From positions 1-64,000 of the forward strand of contig JAKZES010000009.1 in NCBI GenBank assembly GCA_022548915.1: DNA of 64,000 nt, read 5' to 3'. Positions 5,202 to 54,644 of the stretch are shown piece by piece. The translations under genes and the position numbers were made by a program. The stretch is from Verrucomicrobiaceae bacterium E54 (lineage in GTDB: Bacteria > Verrucomicrobiota > Verrucomicrobiia > Verrucomicrobiales > Akkermansiaceae). Position 1 is the stretch's first letter; each line of letters begins with the position of its first letter. The notes under the pieces were generated by a model. It was not told where the DNA came from. It ran no database searches and saw nothing but the letters and a program-made list of their open reading frames with translations.

Positions 5202-6893
5202 TCAGCGCGAAAACCGTTTCTCCAGTTCACTCAGGGAAAACTCGCTCAGGGTCGGTCGGCCATCCGCCGCGCAGTAGGGCAAGTCGCAGGCGAAGAGTTG
5301 CTCGAGCAGGGCCGGGGCCTCATGCGGCCCGGGAGATTCCCGGCGTGCCGCCCGGCGGGCAAGGACCGCCGCCACCTTTTCCGAGGCGAACCGCGACGAG
5401 CCGCTCGCGCCCTCGGCGAGGTCGTCGACCACCTCCAACAGCAAGGACGCCGGATCCTCGTCGTGCAGAAAGGCCGGAGTCGCCCCCAAGCGGATGCTGC
5501 CGTTTCCAAAATCCTCGATCTCGAAACCGGCGGCATCGAAAAGCTCGCGGTGGCGCAGCAGAAGATCGACCTCCCGGGGGCCCGGCTCGATCACCCGCGG
5601 AACGAGCAGCGCCTGGGTGGCCACGCCCTCGGTGCCCGCCGCCAGCCATCTTTCATAGAGGATGCGCTCCCGCGCCGCCCGTGGATCGAGCATGACCAGT
5701 CCGTCCTCGGATTCCATCAGCGCGAAACGACCCAGCAGCTCGCCGATTTGCCGGAAACGGGGTGCCCTCGGCCCGGGTTTCGCGGTCTCCTCAGCCGCCG
5801 GAGCCTCCAATGGCAGGGGCCGCTCGATGGCAGCGACGGGACGCGCGACAAACGATGGAGAAGATGCCGCCAGAGGCTTGGAAGGCGCAGGTTCCTGCCT
5901 CGGGCGTTCGATCGCCGCCAGGCCCCGGCGCACCGACTCGGCGACGGCTTCGCGGAGGTCGTGCGGACGATGCAGCCGGATCTCCCGCTTGGCCGGGTGG
6001 ACGTTGACGTCGACCAGTTTCGGGTCGAGTTCGATCCACAGCCAAGCTGCCGGATGCAGGCCGTCATTCACCGCTCCACGGAATCCCTCGGCAAGTCCCC
6101 GGGAGATCGCCGGGTCCTCCACCGGCCTCCCGTTCAGGAACACGCACTGGTGTCGCCTGCCCTTCCGCGCATGGCGGGCCGGCAGCACGAATCCCGACAC
6201 CCGCAGCCCGCGTCCGCGTTGCTCGGGCAGGTCGATCAGCTCACCGGCCAGCGATGTCCCCACCGCCCAGCGCACCCGGTCCCTGCGCGAACGCCCGGCC
6301 GGAAGCTCGAAAACCTGTCGCTCATCCTTCAGAAACCGGAAGCGCACCCCGTCGGCCGCGAGCGCGTGAAGCCTGAGTTGGTGCTCGATGTGTGCCGACT
6401 CCGTGGTCTCGGTCCGGAGGAACTTCCGCCGGGCCGGCACGTTGAAGAACAAGTCGCGAACCTCGATCATCGTTCCCTCGGCGCACCCCGCCTCGCGGAC
6501 CTGCGCCTCCGCTCCACCGTCCAACCGGATCTCGGTTCCGGCCAGATCACCCCGCGGCCGGGTCACCATCCGGAACCGCGACACGCTGGCGATGCTCGGC
6601 ACCGCCTCGCCACGAAAGCCGAGCGTCTGGATCCGGTGCAGGTCGGCCGCCTCCGCGAGCTTGCTGGTCGCGTGGCGCTCGAGGGAGAGAAGCGCATCCT
6701 CCCGCGACATCCCGCAGCCGTCGTCGCTCACCCGCATCAGCGCCGCGCCACCCCGCCGGATCTCGACCAGCACTTCACCCGCACCGGCATCGAGGCTGTT
6801 CTCCACGAGTTCCTTGATCACGCTGGACGGGCGTTCCACCACCTCGCCGGCCGCCACCTGGCTGGCCAGAACGTCGGGCAGAATCCGGATCAC
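5202..6893 (-). CDS. mutL: DNA mismatch repair protein MutL
   Basis: The start is GTG at 6893, preceded by CAGG seven bases upstream; frames further upstream run into the repeat arrays. The N-terminal GHKL ATPase is clear: IRILPDVLASQVAAGEVVERP, ELVENSLDAGA (catalytic Glu and Asn), DDGCGM, ATSKL and GFRGEA. A C-terminal dimerisation domain follows, for 563 aa in total. All three endonuclease-site motifs appear degenerate: DQHA-x2-E-x4-E reads DPRAARERILYE, ACR reads ARR, and CPHGRP reads CAADGRP. The protein probably bridges MutS to downstream repair factors without nicking DNA itself (inference). It is transcribed away from the IscA/HesB-type gene, with repeat arrays in the shared upstream region. 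Confidence 0.93.
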   Translation of the reverse strand: MIRILPDVLASQVAAGEVVERPSSVIKELVENSLDAGAGEVLVEIRRGGAALMRVSDDGCGMSREDALLSLERHATSKLAEAADLHRIQTLGFRGEAVPSIASVSRFRMVTRPRGDLAGTEIRLDGGAEAQVREAGCAEGTMIEVRDLFFNVPARRKFLRTETTESAHIEHQLRLHALAADGVRFRFLKDERQVFELPAGRSRRDRVRWAVGTSLAGELIDLPEQRGRGLRVSGFVLPARHARKGRRHQCVFLNGRPVEDPAISRGLAEGFRGAVNDGLHPAAWLWIELDPKLVDVNVHPAKREIRLHRPHDLREAVAESVRRGLAAIERPRQEPAPSKPLAASSPSFVARPVAAIERPLPLEAPAAEETAKPGPRAPRFRQIGELLGRFALMESEDGLVMLDPRAARERILYERWLAAGTEGVATQALLVPRVIEPGPREVDLLLRHRELFDAAGFEIEDFGNGSIRLGATPAFLHDEDPASLLLEVVDDLAEGASGSSRFASEKVAAVLARRAARRESPGPHEAPALLEQLFACDLPYCAADGRPTLSEFSLSELEKRFSR

Positions 6894-6913
6894 GGGCACG
6901 CCTGTAGTGGAGA

Positions 6914-6962
6914 GTTCCAAGTTCCAAGTTCCAAGTTCCAAGTTGAGAGTTCGGAGTTCGGG
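6914..6962. repeat. 7-bp tandem array, GTTCCAA type
   Basis: Four perfect GTTCCAA units (6914-6941) are followed by three degenerate ones (GTTGAGA, GTTCGGA, GTTCGGG). The array lies just before the mutL start, in the divergent upstream region. Confidence 0.85.
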
Positions 6963-6987: not shown

Positions 6988-7120
6988 TTCCGCCTTCCGC
7001 CTTCCGCCTTCCGCCTTCCGCCTTCCGCCTTCCGCCTTCCGCCTTCCGCCTTCCGCCTTCCGCTTTCCGCCTTCCGCCTTCCGCCTTCCGCCTTCCGCCT
7101 TCCGCCTTCCGCTTTCCGCT
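6988..7120. repeat. 7-bp tandem array, 19 units of TTCCGC(C/T)
   Basis: Exactly 133 bp made of 19 head-to-tail heptamers, 16 TTCCGCC and 3 TTCCGCT. It fills the space between the mutL upstream region and the gene at 7158. The open frames through it in several phases are repeat artefacts, not genes. Confidence 0.95.
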
Positions 7121-7157
7121 TTCACCGGCGGGCATCCGACCGTATCAGTCTCCCGCC

Positions 7158-28291: not shown

Positions 28292-29512
28292 TTAAACAGG
28301 TGTTTCAGGCCCGCCCGGGGATGACTGGATCAGGGCCGTGAGTCGCTTTTCGAGCAGCGCCGTGAGCCGGGTCGGGCCTCCCTTCTTCGGCAAATCCCCG
28401 GCTGCGATCATCGCCGTGACGTCAATCGGCTTTCCGGCCCGCACCAAGCCACGACGGGCGACGGGATAGGCGGGAAATCCGAAAAGATCCTCCTCTAGCT
28501 TCATGATGGTCTCGGCGTGACGGTCGAGCGTGGGCTCCGCGAGGAGGTAATCGCCGATGTAGCTGTGGGCCTGCAGCGCGGTGAACACCCGGTCGAGGTC
28601 GTCGAGCAGCATCTCCCGTTCCGCCTGCGCCGGCGGGTCGTCCTCATCGAGGAGGCGGCGTCGCAGCCGATAGCGCATCGCGCGGACCCGTTCCGGCGGA
28701 TTGCTTGCCTTCGGATCCGAGCCCATCCGCTCCTCGACCTGCCCCAGCAGGCGCTCGCAGAGGCTCGTCAATCGCTCCTGGAGCTCTCCACGACCGGCCT
28801 CGCCGAGGTATTCCACTTCCTTCAGCGCCATGATGCCGGTGCCGAGACGGATGATGCGCTCGCGGACGGGCATCGACGGCTTCGGCGTCCATCCGATCCG
28901 GTCCTCCAGCCGGTCGAGCCGGCCACTGAAGGTCGCCTCGACCGCCGGATCGTGATGAAACCTCATGCCGACCGGCACCAGCCACGCGGTCCGCCCCTCC
29001 GGCAATCTTGCCGCCGCCTTCATCAGGATCGACGCCACCCCCTCGTGCAGCGGGTCGAGACGCTCGTGGTGGTGGTAGATTTCCCCCTCGGGATAGATCA
29101 CCATCGGCACACCGTCGCCGAGAAGGGTGATCGCCGTCTTGATCGCGGCCAGGTCCGGCCCGTCGCGATCCACCGAGAAGATCCCCATCGACTGCAGCGC
29201 CCAGGTCCGGATCGCCTTCTCTTCAAAGATCTCGCGCGCCGCCATGAAATGGAGCCGCATGCCGTGCCTCCGGCCGACCTCCATCATCAGGTGCGGGTCG
29301 GCATGATCGGCGTGATTCGGTGCCAGCAGGACGGCATCCCCCGCCGCCACCTTCGCGGCAAGGCCGCTGAAACCCTGCTCCTCGATTTCCGCAATCCGGT
29401 ACTTCCGCTCGAGGAGGGAGCGCCGGTTCAACCACAGGGCGAAGGGCCGGAACCAGGCTTTCGGCAACGGCGGGCGGAAGGTGTAGGGCAGGTCGTTGCG
29501 AAGGCGGCGCAT
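28292..29512 (-). CDS. PlsC-family 1-acyl-glycerol-3-phosphate acyltransferase-like protein
   Basis: 406 aa. The acyltransferase motifs are present: NHADHAD (NH-x4-D, residues ~65-71), GIFSVDRDGPD (motif II region) and VIYPEGEIYHH (PEGE, motif III). These define the PlsC/GPAT family, which adds a fatty acid to a phospholipid precursor at the inner face of the membrane. After the catalytic domain (~210 residues) comes a helical, charged C-terminal part of about 190 residues that is unusual for PlsC proper, so the substrate is uncertain. It sits between rpsO and the smpB fragment on the same strand. Confidence 0.8.
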   Translation of the reverse strand: MRRLRNDLPYTFRPPLPKAWFRPFALWLNRRSLLERKYRIAEIEEQGFSGLAAKVAAGDAVLLAPNHADHADPHLMMEVGRRHGMRLHFMAAREIFEEKAIRTWALQSMGIFSVDRDGPDLAAIKTAITLLGDGVPMVIYPEGEIYHHHERLDPLHEGVASILMKAAARLPEGRTAWLVPVGMRFHHDPAVEATFSGRLDRLEDRIGWTPKPSMPVRERIIRLGTGIMALKEVEYLGEAGRGELQERLTSLCERLLGQVEERMGSDPKASNPPERVRAMRYRLRRRLLDEDDPPAQAEREMLLDDLDRVFTALQAHSYIGDYLLAEPTLDRHAETIMKLEEDLFGFPAYPVARRGLVRAGKPIDVTAMIAAGDLPKKGGPTRLTALLEKRLTALIQSSPGGPETPV

Positions 29513-29587: not shown

Positions 29588-29768
29588 CTACTGCCGGTTG
29601 AACCGCGCCACCTCGCGCTGGGCCTCGCGGAGTTCGACCTTCTTCTTCAGGTCGTGGCGTTGGTCGCGGTGGCTCTTGCCCTTGCCAACGCCGATCTCGA
29701 CCTTCACCCGGCGGTTCTTCCAGTACATCCGCTGGCACGGGAGGGTCGATCCCTTGGACTTGAGTTCT
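29588..29768 (-). pseudogene. smpB: Displaced 3' fragment of smpB
   Basis: It encodes KGSTLPCQRMYWKNRRVKVE and the rest of an SmpB tail ending in REVARFNRQ, about 92% identical in DNA to the smpB tail at 36543-36723. Differences are almost all synonymous. The upstream two thirds of the gene, including the start and the OB-fold core, are missing. Synonymous divergence suggests that both copies were selected as functional tails before one was displaced. It marks the left edge of the island. Confidence 0.85.
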
Positions 29769-29791
29769 TTTCGCCCGAAATCCGCCCGTTT

Positions 29792-30036
29792 CGCCCGGCC
29801 CAGAACCCGCGACAACCATTGATATTTCAACGATTTCTCCTGCTACGACGACTGCATGCCTGGCGTTTTGTCTCGCGGTCCGAGATAATCGCTCAGGGTG
29901 TATCCAAAGAGACTGTTTTCCTTTCCGCTCCCAATCCGTTCCCAATCCGCCCCCCTGCGCCCGGCCCAAGACCCGCGAAAACCATTGATATCTCAAAGAT
30001 TTTTCCGCCTACCGTCACTGCATGCCTGGCATATTG
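29792..30036. repeat. Two ~80-bp direct repeats at the island's left end
   Basis: 29792-29871 and 29958-30036 are about 84% identical. Both run from CGCCCGGCCCA through CCGCGA-AACCATTGATAT to CTGCATGCCTGGC. They are separated by 86 bp. There is no convincing ORF in 29769-30164. The repeats may be element ends or binding sites. Confidence 0.75.
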
Positions 30037-30164
30037 TATATTGTGTGTATTGTGTGAAAGAGAGGCCCGGTCTGATCCGGTTCGAACTTCCCATGGTGGC
30101 GTCATCGGAGGCCTCGGTGTCAAGCGCCGGCGGCAGACAGCCCACAAGCGATGGAGCCCGGAAG

Positions 30165-31061
30165 TCACTCCTCGGCCTTCGACCATGCTCCGCTTGCGAT
30201 GTGCCGCTGGCGTTGGATGAGGAAATGATCACCATTGTGCACGCCTTTGGACTCCTCCGTCAGGAGTTCCAGGAACCGTCCATGGTCATCGCCGTTCCAC
30301 TTCTCGCCCTCACGCAGGATCATCTCATGATCCAGCGCGAGTCTGGCATGGAAGGAGAGCTTGTCGGAGAACCGATGCTCCCGGGCAAAATCGGCGAGCA
30401 AGGTGCCGTCCAATTTCGCGAGGAAGTGAACCGAACTGATCGCCACCAGCGGGTTGCGACTGAAAATCCCCTGACGAACCCGCATTCTCAGATCCTCAGG
30501 GTCCTTGATCAGGGTCAGCGACCGTACGTATTCGCCCCACTGCTTCTGACGCCCGAGGATCTCAGGAAAACGGACGCCATACACCCTCATCCTGGGTTGC
30601 TCCAAAAGGAGATAGAAGCAGGAGAATTTCGGGAAGTTGTACGGGTTGAAATTCCGGTTTGAGGGATCGAAATCCTCGCGGGGAATCACCGTGAGCACGA
30701 TCTCGGCACCGACAGGCAACTCATCTTTCATGGCAAAGCCTCTAAACGATACATCCGTGTGAGTAAGTCTTGCCGGATTTCCAGGAAAATAGGGCGGAGG
30801 CGTCAATCGAAACACCCGCCCTTTCAGGTGTCGATCACCAGAATAGACCTCTTCAACAACTCCCTGCCCATTATGCACCATCAGGGATGTTCGTCCGAGT
30901 CTTCGAGCAACCGCTTCTTCCACCGAAAGAGGTTCAACACTCAGCACTTTAATCAGAACTAGGTTCTCATCGAACTTAGGGAAACCACCGTCTTCTTCTG
31001 CAGCACGACCGATGAGGAAGGTCGCCGCCACAAAAAAAACCACGAGATTCTCGATTTTCAT
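30165..31061 (-). CDS. Secreted protein of unknown function, 298 aa, island-borne
   Basis: It starts MKIENLVVFFVAATFLIGRAA, a signal peptide. The mature part is mixed alpha/beta with FRLTPPPYFPGNPARLTHTDV and a Pro-Asn-rich segment (PSNRNFNPYNFPKF), then helical sequence (DPEDLRMRVRQGI; LARLALDHEMILREGEKW-like). I recognise no domain. It begins 14 bp after the stop of the 1775-aa protein and on the same strand, so the two are one transcription unit. It could be an accessory, chaperone or immunity factor for the giant protein. This is context-based inference only. Confidence 0.55.
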   Translation of the reverse strand: MKIENLVVFFVAATFLIGRAAEEDGGFPKFDENLVLIKVLSVEPLSVEEAVARRLGRTSLMVHNGQGVVEEVYSGDRHLKGRVFRLTPPPYFPGNPARLTHTDVSFRGFAMKDELPVGAEIVLTVIPREDFDPSNRNFNPYNFPKFSCFYLLLEQPRMRVYGVRFPEILGRQKQWGEYVRSLTLIKDPEDLRMRVRQGIFSRNPLVAISSVHFLAKLDGTLLADFAREHRFSDKLSFHARLALDHEMILREGEKWNGDDHGRFLELLTEESKGVHNGDHFLIQRQRHIASGAWSKAEE

Positions 31062-31075
31062 AACACTAGCTGCTT

Positions 31076-34000
31076 CTATTCGTCAGTCCAATCTTCATGG
31101 GCTGCATTGCCGCCGGGCAACAAATCCGGATACTCCTTAGCGATAAGGTGCTCTCCAACCGCCTCCTTCACAAGCTCCAATCTTTGACCAACTCGAACAC
31201 CAAACATTGTCAGTGCATATCCACCAAACAACTCTTCCGGAATCCGCCCATCGATAGACGCGTTCGGAGGTTGTAGGTCGCCATCAATAATCCGGCCAAA
31301 ATTTGTGTATCGCCACGACTGAGTTTGATCAGCCAGAATGAAGAACCGAGAGTCAGCTGCCGGCATGCCCGAGTCGGTACAAGTTGCCAGTGCAAGATCG
31401 GATTTGAGTTCCAATCGGAAATTGGTTGGCTTGTTTCCATTTATTTCGAACTGATCAGAGAGCATTATCCCCGGCCTATCTCCGCCATACGGGATCTTTC
31501 CTCGTCTAAAGGCATAGTGAAACGCTATCGTATTTGGGCCAATGCGCTCGTTGATCTCGCTCTGATGGTAAGATTTCCTCAAATGAATCGATGAACCAGG
31601 AGGTGGGTCGCACATCTCATCCTCCAGCCACGGAAGCCTATCTGGAGGGAGGTAGCTATCCACATGCCAATCCATTCCCTCCAACGAGGAGACTCGCTGG
31701 CGATCTGGGTAAATTGCCCTCTTCGAAATCCACTTTGAGCGTTGAACAAACCCAAACCGAACTCTATCCACGCCTCGGTTCGAAATCCCTGCACGGACTG
31801 GACCTTGAAGCTGCTTGACTTCGATCCAAGCTCGCAGTGCTGGCCACGTGTTTGCACTCGTCATCACGGCAGGCTCGTTGCCGGACGGTTGTGATCCAAG
31901 AGTGTCTGTATCCCACATATTACCCAAGACACCTTCACTAGCCAACACGTTTTTTGGTCGAAGCTCGTTTTCGCCATCACCCTGAGTGGCAGGGAGATCA
32001 ATCGAAACGATATCCACTTCCCGACCCCATGACAATCCCTCGATTGGCGAGTAAGCGACACATCCGTTCATGCCCATGCCTAGTGGATCGGAGTCCCAGA
32101 ATACATTACTAACAGAGCTCGGATTTTCAGGCTCTCCAAACACACCGTGGTACACCTTGTCCCATCTCCCGCCGATGTTCTGAACCCCAGAAGCCGAGTA
32201 CTCATAATTCGTGCTCGCTACAACCGATGTTGGGCCTTCAATATCAAAGATGCTTACCTTCACCTCTGCCTCGGCCTCGATAATTCCACCAGTTGCATCC
32301 TGAATTTCAAAAACTATGTTGAGTTTGGATTCACCCACTTGAACGCCTTCCACGTAGATCGTAACGACCTCTGAAAGATTTATGCCGTCTGCGGGAGTCC
32401 CTTCTTCACCGAGGCCCACCACGCGACCAGTTCGGTTGGAGGATCGCCAGAGCCGAATGTTGTCGGGAATATCAAATGCAGCGCTGATTGCAGAGAAGTT
32501 GAGGCCAAATTCCCCATCGATTCTGATTGGCAAGAGATCGGTTTCCGCGACCTCACCATTGGGTCCGGTGATTGGCCGCCAATCGCCGTCCAGGCCAACA
32601 TCATCCTTATCAGGGGTTCCCGAATAGTCATCATCATCGCTGTTCAAAAGGACGGCAATCCCTTTCTGCATGACCACATCCGGTGACACACAATCGTCAA
32701 AATCAAATTGGTTCTTGTCATCGCTCCAACTAACTTTGGGGATCTTCAATCCCACCGGATGAGCCAGGATCGTTCTGGACGCCCCGGAACCGCCTTGGTC
32801 TGAGACCAAGAGAAACGAGCCCTTGCTGTTGCTATCCACAACCGTAAGAGCCTCGGCGCCCTCTCCCCCAAGGCCCGAGCACCACTCTGACGGCGCGATC
32901 AGCTTCCCATTGCACCAAAGCCAGTTGTCCCGCGTCACAGCCGTTCCGTTTGCGGCGAATCGGACGATTCCGTGCTGGGACAACTTCTCAGCCATCCTCA
33001 TTGAGGAGGATGAACTTTGTCCGTCTGTCGAAGTTACAAGTACAGACGAATCCCCACCGTCTTGGGTGGCACAAATGATGGCGGGACCATCGGGAAGAGT
33101 CTCTATTGCCAGGGTTGAGTAATCACCCATCAGGCTGCCCGGAAGGCTGACAACCTCTCCGGAGCTGCTCCATGCGGACGGGCGCCGTGGCGAGACAGGA
33201 TCATGCAGATCGGCGATCGTGTTGAGGACGACCCAGCCGCTCTGACTTACATCGAAAGTCTGACGATCATCGGTCGGTGCAGGATGCCACTGGTCCGGCA
33301 CCTCATACTTCACTGATTGCGGATTGCCCGGGGTGAAGGCGAGGAGTTCGGAGAATGAGTCCCCTCCCATTCCCTGTTGCCAATACACCCATTCGGTATC
33401 GACACAGAACTGGCGACCGCTTTCATCGACACCACGTGGCGCGATTCCGAACGGATCGGAATAGGGAGTCTCCGAGAAGATACCGAGGAAGCCCGGACTC
33501 TGGTTTGCCGGCCAGCCAATGCTAATATTCCATGGAGGAGCTCCGTAGGGTCCCTCACACTGGCCCTCGCCCAATAGATCTCCAGACGAATTGAAGTGTG
33601 CCCATGACGAGTGAGTGAAGGTGTACTGCTCGCCAAGGAAGTCATACTCAATTGGTTCTACTGGTCCGCATTCGATCCACGCTCCCGCCGACCATTTGCC
33701 GTTCTCGAAGAGCACCTCACCAAGATCGTTGACCTCCAGTCCGACGCCCAAAGCGGAGGGATGCTCAATCTCAAGGAGGACGTACGCCGCTGCTGTCGCA
33801 GGCGGCCAGGTGACGTCGGGATCGGCGGGGTCGGAGTCATCATCGTTTGTGACGCCGTCTCCGTCGTGATCTTCGGGTGTGGCGTCCGGCAGTGGTTGCA
33901 CGCCGGCCTGGTACGCCTCCAGATTCGTCAGGGGACCGCCTTGGAACAGACCGGCGGCGTTGTCGGCGAGCGGATCGAGACCAAAGAACGCCGCCCAGCC

Positions 34001-36403
34001 GTCGGGGATGCCGTCGCCTGAGGTGTCGGGATTTGTCGGATCGGTGCCGAGGGCGAACTCTTCGGCGGCGGACAACCCGTCGCCATCCGCGTCGTATGAG
34101 TTGGCCAGTCCGTAACGCAGCCGGAAGAACCCGCTCGGGCTTGGCAGACCGCCAAGCCACTGGTCGATATCGACCACCAGTTCGTGATTGGTGCCGATGA
34201 AGCCGTATGGGAAGACCTGCCAGTTTGCCAAGTCAGTAGAAACCTCGACCGTATACCAGAAGTCACTCCGGCCAAACCACTGAAGTTTGTTCGTGTATCT
34301 GAAGTCGTCGGGATCAAATTTCTCATGCTTGAGCGCCGCCACTCTTCCGACATCGTGCTCGTCCTTGTTCGACATCCCGTCGTTGTCAAAATCGCCGGTC
34401 GGTGCCTTGCTGGTTCCCAGTTCCAGCGACAGCGGCGAGAACCCGTGCCAGTTCTCGTAGCCGTCCTCCATCCCGTCGCCATCGGTGTCGGGATTAAGCG
34501 GATCCGTCAGGTAAGTGTCGATTTCAGCGCCGTTGCTCAGCCCGTCGCCATCGGCATCAAGGAGCGGATCCAGCTCAATCTCGAAGCTCCAAGGAGCCGA
34601 CATCGCCTGCACGCCGTCGTGGTCGGTGACCACGGCCACCGCATTCCCCGCTCCGGCAGGCAGCTCCCCGACCGCCAGCTGCCAGGGCGAACTGGTCGCC
34701 GAGCCGGCAAACTCTCCATTCACATGGAAATCGACCCGCGCGATGTGCGCCACGCCGAAGGGACCGCTGTGCGAAGGAGACGCCGCGAGGACCATCCCAC
34801 CCGGCTCGACCGGTTCCACCACCATGCCTGTAAGGGTAACCGAGGGCGCACCCTCGTCGATGATGTTCTCCGTCTGGGCATCCGGGAGCTTGATGCCCCA
34901 CCAGCTGCTGTACGACCCGTTGCCGAGCTGGCCCTGGTCATTGCGGCCCCACACCCAGATGACGCCATCCGAATCAATCGCGGCGCTCGCACCCTGGATG
35001 CCGACGCCGCCTGCGGCGACCCGCACGATATTCTGAAGGTAGCCCGTGCCTGCCGCGTCCTTCACCCGGGCGGCCGCGCCGCGCAGCGTGTTGGTATTGT
35101 CGCCCAGTTGTCCGTAAATATTCGACCCCCACGCCCAGACCTCGCCGTTGGCATCCAGGGCGAGCGCATGCACCCCGCCACAGGCCACCTGCACGATGTT
35201 CTCAAGCGGGAGTCCATCATCCGCCCGGATGACCTTGGCGGGATCGGTCACCGTGCCAGAAGAGGTCGATCCTTGCCCCAATCGACCGTTCGTCTGCCGT
35301 CCGCAGGTCCACACGGTGCCCTGCAGGTCCGGATCGGTCGGGTGCCACCGGACCACCGCCGAGTAGTATTCGCCAGCCTCGATGGACCAGGCATCGGTCA
35401 GCGGCGTGGTCGCATCCAGCATCATCGGGACCGCGCGCGACCGCGACACCAGATCACCCTGCCCGAGCTGTCCCTGGTTGTTGTAGCCCCAAGTCCAGAC
35501 CTCGCCGGTCCCACCAGACTCCTCAAGCTGATTCGGACTCCGGGCGATCGCATGGTAGTCCCCGCCCGCGACTTCACGAATCCCCCCGAGTGCCGGATAG
35601 CCCGGCGACTCGGAAAGTTCGACCCGCATCGCGTAGGTCTGCGAGCCGGTGGTGACACCTCTCCCGGTTTGTCCGTATTGGTTCCATCCCCACGACCACA
35701 GATCACCATTGGAACCGACGGCGTACGAGCCTTGAATGCCACCGGCCACGTCCACCACATCCCGCAAGGGCGCACCGGGACCCGTGAGCACCTGGTCTGG
35801 AACGTAGGCATGCTGGGTGGCTCCGTTGCCCACTGCGCCATAACTGTTCTGGCCCGCGACCCAGACGTCGCCCGCGTCGTCGATAAGCAGGGAATGGGTG
35901 AAACCGGCGGCAAGTTCGCGTCCATTGTCGAAGTTCGACGCTCCATCCGGTGCCAGGACGCGAAGCGGCAAGACTTTCCGCACGAGCGAGCCGTAGCCGT
36001 TCCCCAACCGCCCGTGTTGCTGATACCCCCAAGACCAGGCCCGTCCCCCCACACTGAGGGCGAGACCATGCTTGTCGCCGAGTGCCACCGATCCGGTGAT
36101 CCGGTAATCGCCCGTGGTGACATCGCTGGCCTCGGACCCAGACCATGCGCGAGCCTTCACCATGGCGGTCCGGGCGACCGTAAGCGTCTCCCCCGCCCCA
36201 ACCAAGGGGTCGAAAGTGTCTGGATCCCGTCCGTCGAGCGTGTAGCGAATCACCACCCCTGACTCCGGCGAATCGACCAGCACCTCAAGGCCTGTCGGCG
36301 AATCCGCCACCAGCGGCGTGAGAATCGGGGCCTCCACGGCCCAGAGCATGCTCCCAAAAGCTCCCAAGCTCCACGAAATCAACCCCGCTGCAACCCGCTG
36401 CAA
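31076..36403 (-). CDS. Giant RCC1/calcium-repeat secreted protein, 1775 aa, island-borne
   Basis: The open frame begins with TTG at 36403 inside a 10-bp repeat, then a hydrophobic signal-like segment. Residues ~28-95 resemble the chitobiase C-terminal fold (VVIRYTLDGRDPDTFDP). Residues ~105-450 hold about six RCC1 beta-propeller repeats (W-x-WG-x-N-x-x-GQLG). Thrombospondin type 3-like calcium repeats follow at ~620-660 and ~760-860 (DADGDGLSNGAEI). The last ~900 residues are unfamiliar, and their DNA (31076-33700) is visibly AT-richer than the 5' half. An upstream ATG at 36431 is out of frame (see findings), so the true start is uncertain. Confidence 0.7.
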   Translation of the reverse strand: MQRVAAGLISWSLGAFGSMLWAVEAPILTPLVADSPTGLEVLVDSPESGVVIRYTLDGRDPDTFDPLVGAGETLTVARTAMVKARAWSGSEASDVTTGDYRITGSVALGDKHGLALSVGGRAWSWGYQQHGRLGNGYGSLVRKVLPLRVLAPDGASNFDNGRELAAGFTHSLLIDDAGDVWVAGQNSYGAVGNGATQHAYVPDQVLTGPGAPLRDVVDVAGGIQGSYAVGSNGDLWSWGWNQYGQTGRGVTTGSQTYAMRVELSESPGYPALGGIREVAGGDYHAIARSPNQLEESGGTGEVWTWGYNNQGQLGQGDLVSRSRAVPMMLDATTPLTDAWSIEAGEYYSAVVRWHPTDPDLQGTVWTCGRQTNGRLGQGSTSSGTVTDPAKVIRADDGLPLENIVQVACGGVHALALDANGEVWAWGSNIYGQLGDNTNTLRGAAARVKDAAGTGYLQNIVRVAAGGVGIQGASAAIDSDGVIWVWGRNDQGQLGNGSYSSWWGIKLPDAQTENIIDEGAPSVTLTGMVVEPVEPGGMVLAASPSHSGPFGVAHIARVDFHVNGEFAGSATSSPWQLAVGELPAGAGNAVAVVTDHDGVQAMSAPWSFEIELDPLLDADGDGLSNGAEIDTYLTDPLNPDTDGDGMEDGYENWHGFSPLSLELGTSKAPTGDFDNDGMSNKDEHDVGRVAALKHEKFDPDDFRYTNKLQWFGRSDFWYTVEVSTDLANWQVFPYGFIGTNHELVVDIDQWLGGLPSPSGFFRLRYGLANSYDADGDGLSAAEEFALGTDPTNPDTSGDGIPDGWAAFFGLDPLADNAAGLFQGGPLTNLEAYQAGVQPLPDATPEDHDGDGVTNDDDSDPADPDVTWPPATAAAYVLLEIEHPSALGVGLEVNDLGEVLFENGKWSAGAWIECGPVEPIEYDFLGEQYTFTHSSWAHFNSSGDLLGEGQCEGPYGAPPWNISIGWPANQSPGFLGIFSETPYSDPFGIAPRGVDESGRQFCVDTEWVYWQQGMGGDSFSELLAFTPGNPQSVKYEVPDQWHPAPTDDRQTFDVSQSGWVVLNTIADLHDPVSPRRPSAWSSSGEVVSLPGSLMGDYSTLAIETLPDGPAIICATQDGGDSSVLVTSTDGQSSSSSMRMAEKLSQHGIVRFAANGTAVTRDNWLWCNGKLIAPSEWCSGLGGEGAEALTVVDSNSKGSFLLVSDQGGSGASRTILAHPVGLKIPKVSWSDDKNQFDFDDCVSPDVVMQKGIAVLLNSDDDDYSGTPDKDDVGLDGDWRPITGPNGEVAETDLLPIRIDGEFGLNFSAISAAFDIPDNIRLWRSSNRTGRVVGLGEEGTPADGINLSEVVTIYVEGVQVGESKLNIVFEIQDATGGIIEAEAEVKVSIFDIEGPTSVVASTNYEYSASGVQNIGGRWDKVYHGVFGEPENPSSVSNVFWDSDPLGMGMNGCVAYSPIEGLSWGREVDIVSIDLPATQGDGENELRPKNVLASEGVLGNMWDTDTLGSQPSGNEPAVMTSANTWPALRAWIEVKQLQGPVRAGISNRGVDRVRFGFVQRSKWISKRAIYPDRQRVSSLEGMDWHVDSYLPPDRLPWLEDEMCDPPPGSSIHLRKSYHQSEINERIGPNTIAFHYAFRRGKIPYGGDRPGIMLSDQFEINGNKPTNFRLELKSDLALATCTDSGMPAADSRFFILADQTQSWRYTNFGRIIDGDLQPPNASIDGRIPEELFGGYALTMFGVRVGQRLELVKEAVGEHLIAKEYPDLLPGGNAAHEDWTDE

Positions 36404-36420
36404 CCCGCTGCAACCCGCTG
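36384..36420. repeat. 10-bp tandem repeat at the start of the giant RCC1 gene
   Basis: Three exact CAACCCGCTG units (36391-36420) and a partial fourth. On the coding strand the unit reads CAGCGGGTTG. The unit length is not a multiple of three, and the array lies between an upstream ATG (36431) and the body of the reading frame. Confidence 0.9.
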
Positions 36421-36542
36421 AAACGCTTCATGGCGGTGAAAGCAAAGCTTCGCGTGACTCGCGGCTCAAGGCCAAGCAAGGGAGGCGAAGTTTTCCACAA
36501 TCGGTGCCCGCCCCTCCGACCATCTGAGTGACGCGAGCCTTT

Positions 36543-37001
36543 CTACTGCCGGTTGAAACGCGCCACCTCGCGCTGGGCCTCGCGGAGTTCGACCTTCTTC
36601 TTGAGGTCGTGCCGCTGATCGCGGTGGCTCTTGCCCTTGCCGACCCCAATCTCGACCTTCACCCGGCGGTTCTTCCAGTACATCCGGAGGCACGGGAGGG
36701 TCGAGCCCTTGGCCTCCAGTTCGTGCTCGAGCTTGTTGATTTCGGACTTGTGCAGCAGCAGGCGACGCGAGCGCCGGGCTTCATGCTGGAAAAAGGCCCC
36801 GGCCGTTTCCCACGGCTGGATGTGGCAGCCGTAGAGGAAGATCTGGCCGTTCTCGATCCGCGCGAAGGCGTCGGAGATGTTGATCTTACCGGCGCGCACC
36901 GACTTGACCTCGGTGCCCTTCAGCTCGATGCCCGCCTCAAAGGTCTCGCCGATGTGATAGTCCCGGCGTGCCTTGCGGTTGTTGGCGATCTCGTTGCTCA
37001 T
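36543..37001 (-). CDS. smpB: SsrA-binding protein SmpB
   Basis: 152 aa, the normal length. NRKARRDYHIGETFEAGIEL and GTEVKSVRAGK form the OB-fold core that binds tmRNA, HEARRSRRLLLHK follows, and the basic tail (GKSHRDQRHDLKKK) enters the decoding centre. It works with tmRNA to rescue stalled ribosomes; I find no ssrA gene in this window. The last ~55 codons are duplicated at 29588. It is followed downstream by the probable island and preceded by rpoZ on the same strand. Confidence 0.96.
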   Translation of the reverse strand: MSNEIANNRKARRDYHIGETFEAGIELKGTEVKSVRAGKINISDAFARIENGQIFLYGCHIQPWETAGAFFQHEARRSRRLLLHKSEINKLEHELEAKGSTLPCLRMYWKNRRVKVEIGVGKGKSHRDQRHDLKKKVELREAQREVARFNRQ

Positions 37002-54484: not shown

Positions 54485-54516
54485 ACGCCGCCCGGCCCTC
54501 GTGCCCGGCGGCGTCT
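54485..54516 (+). terminator. GC-rich hairpin after rplT
   Basis: ACGCCGCC pairs with GGCGGCGT across about 15 nt and is followed by CTTT. It is a plausible terminator but with a short T-run. Confidence 0.5.
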
Positions 54517-54644
54517 TTCGTGGTGCGTGGCTGCCCCGGCCCGGGGCAGGCCGTGGTGGCGGCGGCCCGCCGCAAGCCGTCTTTCGTGGTGCGTGGCTGC
54601 CCCGGCCCGGGGCAGGCCGTGGTTGCGGCGGCCCGCCGCAAACT
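54513..54644. repeat. Two direct 66-bp tandem copies
   Basis: 54513-54578 and 54579-54644 are near-identical (one difference near the middle). Each contains a strong palindrome, TGCCCCGG-C-CCGGGGCA. The second copy ends 1 bp before the stop codon of the VapC-type gene. Confidence 0.88.

What the first reader, a model, noticed from the sequence alone, without database searches (positions are those of the whole stretch)
29588..36543. Genomic island integrated at the 3' end of smpB
A ~180-bp repeat of the smpB 3' end flanks a 7-kb segment in the same orientation, matching exactly to the stop codon and diverging beyond. Differences are almost all synonymous, which fits two selected tails from different genomes, as when an integrating element restores the gene it enters. 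No integrase is seen, so mobility is unexplained.
Basis: partly seen in the sequence, partly recalled or inferred. Interest (0 to 1): 0.75.

Follow-up and report, generated by a model that had tools for sequence, protein, structure and literature searches.

The report
Gene pair beside duplicated smpB end
A two-gene block sits beside the housekeeping gene smpB together with a leftover copy of that gene's end, which looks like the scar of DNA taken in from a sister species by ordinary recombination, with no mobile-element enzyme seen nearby.

Summary
The last 180 nt of smpB (36543-36722, minus strand) recur at 29588-29767, 166 of 180 identical, ending at the stop codon. An insertion is supported: 7 of 17 other genus genomes have smpB followed directly by the acyltransferase gene, and none of the 12 readable gaps holds this gene pair. 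The two tails were probably selected in two genomes: 11 of 14 differences are synonymous, and the relic has changed less than an old in-place duplicate should have, though that test weakens with nearer outgroups.

The integrase reading is only partly supported. No tyrosine recombinase lies on the 128.6-kb contig, none of 194 other sampled family genomes shows a comparable smpB fragment, and the gap in relatives holds other genes without smpB tails. I prefer uptake of sister-species DNA anchored by recombination in smpB, leaving a hybrid smpB and a displaced tail.

The cargo is livelier: a giant RCC1/TSP3 protein with a rear part unmatched in the genus, a 298-aa partner, and a 10-bp repeat that puts a possible ATG out of frame. 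Donor, direction and cargo function remain unproven.

The parts
36543..37001 (-). functional smpB (152 aa)
   Evidence: NCBIfam PRK05422 E 9.6e-55 and TIGR00086 E 2.1e-48
36543..36722 (-). smpB 3' end present in two copies: functional copy
   Evidence: the repeat finder D1
29588..29767 (-). relic copy of the smpB 3' end, 166/180 identical, ends at the stop codon, 75 bp before the acyltransferase gene
31076..36403 (-). giant protein (1775 aa from a TTG): RCC1 repeats, TSP3 repeats, AT-rich C-terminal part without match in the genus; secreted by the look of its N-terminus (by eye)
   Evidence: Pfam WD40_RLD, RCC1, RCC1_2, TSP3_bac; GC profile and G014 comparison; genus search
36384..36424 (-). 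decamer tandem repeat (CAGCGGGTTG on the coding strand) at the start of the RCC1 gene; a possible ATG start at 36431 is out of frame with the gene at the present unit number
   Evidence: TRF 4.1 copies, 96%; frame bookkeeping
30165..31061 (-). 298-aa protein, N-terminus looks like a signal peptide (by eye), no Pfam or NCBIfam match
   Evidence: remote homologue at G014:C53
29770..29874 (-). copy A of a ~100-bp dispersed repeat, directly upstream of the smpB relic
   Evidence: model R1, E 5.9e-28; this copy was used to build the model
29935..30040 (-). copy B of the same dispersed repeat
   Evidence: model R1, E 3.3e-27; also used to build the model
28292..29512 (-). acyltransferase gene, the gene that directly follows smpB in relatives with an empty site
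   Evidence: Pfam Acyltransferase E 4.2e-13

Best explanation
The 7-kb segment is an inserted two-gene module with a recombination scar. DNA from a sister species, carrying an smpB 3' end followed by the RCC1 gene and the 298-aa gene, recombined by homology within the smpB tail of this lineage. It entered either as a circle by one crossover or as a linear piece with one homologous and one illegitimate end. Functional smpB is then a hybrid whose last part is the donor's, and the old tail was pushed 7 kb downstream, where it is now a non-functional relic in front of the acyltransferase gene. Shown: the duplication, the empty site in relatives, mainly synonymous divergence, no tyrosine recombinase on the contig. 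Inferred: the donor, the direction of transfer, the crossover type and the loss of function of the relic.
For: Empty site in 7 of 17 genus genomes. 14 differences, 11 synonymous; 14 random changes give a mean of 9.95 non-synonymous codons, P(<=3) = 1e-4 in 20,000 simulations. With 18 relatives as outgroups the functional branch has 8 synonymous and 0 non-synonymous changes and the relic branch 3 and 3; a relic neutral since the split should have about 35 changes and has 6 (Poisson 1.4e-9, conditional test 0.0014). The two tails are nearest each other (166/180), then the sister genome G014 (154 and 150), and pair in the tail tree at 94/77. The duplicated block ends abruptly beside unrelated sequence. 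No tyrosine recombinase on the contig. Precedents: partial lacZ duplication by single crossover of a re-circularised molecule, and HFIR (PMC3240628, passages); a proposed HFIR-like displacement of older genes at Vibrio T6SS loci (PMC5361080, passages).
Against: No donor genome was found. With only the five nearest relatives as outgroups the split is 5/0 and 5/3 with one unclear and the rate argument weakens (conditional P = 0.074, Poisson 0.0005). Native and donor tails cannot be told apart: in 16 comparisons of the sequence after the two stop codons with relatives, 2 passed the 95% shuffle level and none the best of 200 shuffles. G014, G002 and G015 carry metalloprotease genes after smpB, so an extra loss is needed if this lineage had an empty site. 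HFIR is rare by both papers; PMC3240628 gives about 1-kb inserts with similar deletions and micro-homology as typical and holds it largely restricted to competent species. Competence was not tested here and micro-homology cannot be tested without the donor. The tail tree places the pair apart from G014, at weak forks.
Confidence: 0.55

Rival explanations
1. Integrase-driven genomic island: attB lies in the smpB 3' end, the element carries a replacement tail, the old tail marks its far end, and the recombinase gene was lost or acted in trans.
For: Anatomy is as expected: gene restored, displaced fragment in the same orientation at the far end, empty site in relatives. The three non-synonymous changes lie in codons 1-12, upstream of a 38-bp identical block that could hold a crossover. 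A Staphylococcus phage record has an integrase gene as the next gene after smpB, so smpB neighbourhoods can host integrases.
Against: No tyrosine recombinase on contig C255; 16 PF00589 matches are elsewhere. No comparable fragment in 194 other sampled family genomes or at 47 smpB loci of genome contigs within the stretches held. In the phage collection a 59-aa tail query matched 39 records, all under 60% identity; 33 cover at least 80% of the query and 6 Klebsiella phage records 61%; I did not check each for a lone tail. No relative in viral contigs by a close-relative search.
Confidence: 0.22
2. Mirror event: the RCC1 pair was already next to smpB, and a donor fragment reaching from mid-smpB into the acyltransferase gene replaced the region downstream of the pair, so the relic is the foreign end.
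For: Sister genomes carry other genes in the gap, while the relic-to-acyltransferase gap of 75 bp looks like an empty site. The anatomy is the same.
Against: The acyltransferase protein groups with G014 at 97/96, so nothing shows a foreign gene there; a sister donor would be hard to see.
Confidence: 0.12
3. Old in-place duplication of the smpB end within one lineage, with drift of the copy.
For: The relic branch has 3 non-synonymous changes, the functional branch none. With the five nearest relatives as outgroups, the conditional rate test is not significant (0.074).
Against: Fewer changes in the copy than neutrality since the split predicts (6 against about 35), and 14 random changes rarely give so few amino-acid changes (P = 1e-4).
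Confidence: 0.06
4. Assembly chimera of two strains in a draft genome of 255 contigs.
For: The genome is a draft in 255 contigs, 97.49% complete, 0.85% contamination. The two tails share identical blocks of 44 and 38 bp, long enough for a short-read assembler to swap tail letters between the copies.
Against: No N in the window. Around the junction (starts 29760-29789) the only word of 12, 14 or 16 letters found more than once in the window, both strands counted, is one self-complementary 12-mer. A swap of tails would not create the relic.
Confidence: 0.05

Closest known systems
Gene-restoring genomic islands in tRNA/tmRNA and protein-coding genes (Islander/TIGER type; PMC4383910 abstract passage, PMC12884075 passages)
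   Same: Restored target gene at one end and displaced fragment at the other, same orientation; empty site in relatives.
   Different: No tyrosine recombinase on the contig, a 180-bp repeat at 92% rather than a short identical core, no recurrence in the family sample.
Homology-facilitated illegitimate recombination and single-crossover integration of re-circularised molecules (PMC3240628, passages)
   Same: One homologous end, one non-homologous end, or a partial duplication of the anchor gene; no recombinase needed.
   Different: Natural event inferred from one genome, 7 kb rather than about 1 kb; donor, deletion and micro-homology are not visible.
Displacement arrays of T6SS effector-immunity modules in Vibrio cholerae (PMC5361080, passages)
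   Same: A new module is added downstream of a conserved anchor and an older gene stays behind.
   Different: Here the anchor is a housekeeping gene, the remnant is a gene end, and toxin-immunity function is not shown.
Polymorphic toxin modules with variable C-terminal part (PMC3482391, start of abstract and one passage)
   Same: Conserved N-terminal part, AT-rich C-terminal part unmatched in the genus, small downstream gene.
   Different: No known toxin or immunity domain was found. A find for RCC1, thrombospondin and TSP3 in the held text (300,000 of 357,715 characters) gave one hit, inside a virus strain name.

Membership tests
Integrase-type genomic island | fragment of the target gene at the far end, same orientation, target gene intact | tested here: met
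Integrase-type genomic island | empty site in relatives | tested here: met
   7 of 17 genus genomes with a 70-225 nt gap; 5 of 17 with other genes; 5 of 17 at a contig edge, rearranged or without the acyltransferase gene
Integrase-type genomic island | recombinase gene in the element | tested here: not met
   no PF00589 match on contig C255; Pfam on the two genes shows none. Serine recombinases were not searched genome-wide
Integrase-type genomic island | same site used by related elements | tested here: not met
   no comparable smpB fragment in 194 other sampled family genomes; G139 and G144 have a second smpB match in frames of 163 and 195 aa (both 6% contamination), G077 a weak 39-aa match
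Integrase-type genomic island | identical core at both ends | tested here: inconclusive
   longest identical blocks 44 and 38 bp inside a 92% repeat
Homology-facilitated illegitimate recombination | one homologous end and one non-homologous end | tested here: met
   the repeat starts abruptly at 29767 beside unrelated sequence
Homology-facilitated illegitimate recombination | short micro-homology or deletion at the illegitimate joint | not testable with these tools
   the donor sequence is unknown
Homology-facilitated illegitimate recombination | a naturally competent recipient, as a rule | not tested
   competence genes were not searched
Polymorphic toxin module | conserved N-terminal and variable C-terminal part with a small downstream gene | tested here: met
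   residues 1-957 60% identical to G014:C53, 707-1219 44% to G014:C36; residues 1220-1775 without match in 17 other genus genomes at E <= 1e-5; GC 0.59-0.68 over codons 1-900, 0.49-0.55 after 1300; downstream genes of GC 0.52-0.54 at the three loci, at C53 with a GC 0.61 gene between
Polymorphic toxin module | recognisable toxin domain and immunity protein | tested here: not met
   best Pfam and NCBIfam stretches of the large protein lie within residues 40-823; none for the 298-aa protein; toxicity untested
Phase-variable contingency gene | tandem repeat of a unit not divisible by three near the start codon | tested here: met
   10-bp unit, 4.1 copies; a possible ATG at 36431 is out of frame
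Phase-variable contingency gene | unit number differs between strains at the same gene | tested here: inconclusive
   one homologue at another locus of another species has 9 units; of 11 RCC1-type loci of relatives scanned (several hold only part of a gene) it alone shows such an array
Phase-variable contingency gene | observed switching within a population | not testable with these tools
   needs reads or cultures

The most novel reading that the evidence does not exclude
Phase-variable, polymorphic secreted RCC1 modules of Akkermansiaceae spread between species without any mobile-element machinery, by using the conserved end of a neighbouring housekeeping gene such as smpB as a recombination handle and leaving a displaced gene end as a scar.
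Probability: 0.15. Interest if true: 0.55.

Novelty: new member of a known kind. Interest (0 to 1): 0.36.

Why it matters
It gives a readable scar of gene gain at a housekeeping gene, in which synonymous changes help separate time spent in another genome from time spent as a relic. It is a caution that a restored gene with a displaced fragment is not proof of an integrase island. The cargo points to a variable, possibly switchable protein pair in a little-studied group.

Tried and rejected
Tyrosine recombinase in or near the segment: none on the contig. Phage or viral carriers of an smpB tail: whole-smpB query, 67 phage records, all under 60% identity, 65 covering at least 80% (30 of 67 rows seen); tail query, 39 of 39 rows seen, all under 60%; no relative in viral contigs. 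Telling native from donor tail by flanking sequence: 2 of 16 comparisons passed the 95% shuffle level, none the best of 200 shuffles. The ~100-bp repeat as product of Y1 transposases: 19 Y1_Tnp matches in the genome, best repeat match in the loci around them E 0.28; its folding as single-stranded DNA is not beyond shuffles in three copies. Longer shared flanks between repeat copies: only the repeat itself matched, 65 and 81 bp. A relative of the 298-aa protein: none in genome contigs, one remote homologue in 17 other genus genomes. Literature: 'smpB gene' with 'attachment site' and 'integrated' gave 0 papers, a six-term search on protein-coding targets 0. Eight papers hold smpB with integration site, genomic island and integrase, of which I read passages of two. 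One search listed 8 of 22 papers on mapped elements; I read passages of one, in which smpB does not occur. Searches for RCC1 with polymorphic toxins and phase variation were seen as listings, plus passages of PMC9218822 and PMC3482391.

Full report
Two copies of the smpB 3' end, 180 nt, lie at 36543-36722 and 29588-29767, same strand, 6955 bp apart; the second copy scores E = 2.5e-70 in a search of the own genome. They match in 166 of 180 letters and both end at TAG. Ungapped, 4 of 33 letters match just before the repeat and 6 of 40 just after the stop. Functional smpB is 152 aa and matches the SmpB models. The relic lacks the first 93 codons.

Between the copies lie two large genes on the minus strand: a 1775-aa protein with RCC1 and TSP3 repeats, and a 298-aa protein without Pfam or NCBIfam match. 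After the relic comes an acyltransferase gene. I read the genes further out as rpsO and pnp, and the gene upstream of smpB as rpoZ, by eye only.

Relatives. Of 17 other genomes of the genus, 7 (G003, G005, G008, G011, G013, G016, G017) have the acyltransferase 70-225 nt after smpB (stop codon counted). Five (G002, G007, G009, G010, G015) have 0.9-3.7 kb of other genes between. Five (G001, G004, G006, G012, G014) end at a contig edge, lack the gene or have it elsewhere. None of the stretches read shows the RCC1 or 298-aa gene there. G014 is the sister in the acyltransferase tree (97/96). G014, G002 and G015 carry metalloprotease genes (named by eye) after smpB in the opposite orientation; the window has no relative of the G014 one (best E 0.023). 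So the spot is variable in the genus, but I found no smpB fragment at it in these others.

How rare is the fragment? In a 195-genome sample of the family, this genome included, 186 had an smpB tail match and 9 had none. By the match counts only four had two: this genome, G077, G139 and G144. The G077 extra is a weak 39-aa match, presumably the same place. G139 and G144 show a second match in frames of 163 and 195 aa, both at 6% contamination, so probably whole genes. In the 57-genome set, G015 had a far-off weak extra match at 31%.

What the differences say. Of 14 changed letters 11 are synonymous. Fourteen random changes give 9.95 non-synonymous codons on average; 3 or fewer came with frequency 1e-4 in 20,000 simulations. 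With all 18 relatives as outgroups, the functional tail has 8 synonymous and 0 other changes and the relic 3 and 3. If the relic had been free of selection since the split, about 35 changes would be expected; 6 are seen (Poisson 1.4e-9, conditional test 0.0014). With only the five nearest relatives the split is 5/0 and 5/3 with one unclear, and the tests give 0.0005 and 0.074. So most divergence probably arose while both tails were parts of working genes, hence in two genomes, and the relic has been free for a shorter time. The clearest damage is L->Q at codon 12, where all 18 relatives keep the T of the leucine codon; codons 3 and 4 vary in relatives anyway. That the three amino-acid changes sit in codons 1-12 may mean that this part came in as a truncated gene piece and the rest is the old native tail. 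The chance of that grouping is 10/286 by hand, and it was seen after the fact. The tail tree pairs the two copies (94/77) but places the pair apart from G014 at weak forks.

Mechanism. An integrase island would look like this, but its engine is missing: no tyrosine recombinase on the 128.6-kb contig although 16 matches exist in the genome, and no recurrence in the sample. Single crossover with a re-circularised molecule gave partial lacZ duplications in E. coli, and homology-facilitated illegitimate recombination joins one homologous and one foreign end (PMC3240628, passages). A mechanism akin to the latter was proposed for Vibrio modules that push older genes downstream (PMC5361080, passages). 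Both papers call it rare, and the first ties it mostly to competent species and to inserts of about 1 kb; competence was not tested here. I put recombination with sister-species DNA first (0.55) and an integrase second (0.22). The direction cannot be settled: of 16 comparisons of the sequences after the two stop codons with relatives, none beat the best of 200 shuffles. Identical blocks of 44 and 38 bp could let a short-read assembler swap tail letters, which would change the assignment but not create the relic.

A ~100-bp dispersed repeat has two copies just upstream of the relic. The nearer copy's shared part ends within about 6 nt of it, although I set the limits of the model. Three more copies lie elsewhere in the genome (one of them used to build the model), with weaker matches in 6 of 17 genus genomes. 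It is not linked to Y1 transposases in the loci examined. Its closeness to the joint may be chance or may mark the illegitimate end.

The cargo. Residues 1-957 of the large protein are 60% identical to a protein at G014:C53, and residues 707-1219 are 44% identical to one at G014:C36. Residues 1220-1775 have no match in 17 other genus genomes (E <= 1e-5). GC is 0.59-0.68 over codons 1-900 and 0.49-0.55 after codon 1300. At G014:C53 the remote homologue of the 298-aa protein (26%, GC 0.52) is the second gene downstream, with a GC 0.61 gene between; at C36 the next gene has GC 0.52 and no match to the 298-aa protein. This resembles variable-tip secreted proteins, but no toxin domain was found. 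DNA similarity to G014:C53 begins at 36424, at a decamer array. Here a possible ATG (36431) is out of frame with the large gene and would be in frame with one unit fewer or two more; G014:C53 has nine units. This suggests switching, which is untested; a TTG start at 36403 stays open.

Verdict: a real, uncommon recombination scar of a known kind.

Noticed in passing
36384-36431: A 10-bp tandem repeat at the start of the RCC1 gene puts a possible ATG out of frame; the homologue at G014:C53 has 9 units. Looks like a phase-variable gene.
   Followed up: partly
29770-29874, 29935-30040; own genome C189:110397-110492, C209:23799-23899, C212:32380-32478: A ~100-bp dispersed repeat family of unknown nature, weakly seen in 6 of 17 other genomes of the genus.
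   Followed up: partly
31076-36403 and 30165-31061: RCC1/TSP3 protein with conserved GC-rich front, AT-rich rear unmatched in the genus, and a 298-aa partner; related loci at G014:C53 and G014:C36.
   Followed up: partly
smpB-acyltransferase gap in L043, L044, L046, L049, L051: The gap after smpB holds different genes in different species: metalloproteases, an acetyltransferase-like gene, a sensor-kinase-like gene (names by eye).
   Followed up: partly
6988-7123: About 19 copies of the heptamer TTCCGCC, beyond a reading frame that looks like mutL by eye (5202-6941).
   Followed up: no
54512-54641: A 66-bp unit in two copies, 98% alike.
   Followed up: no
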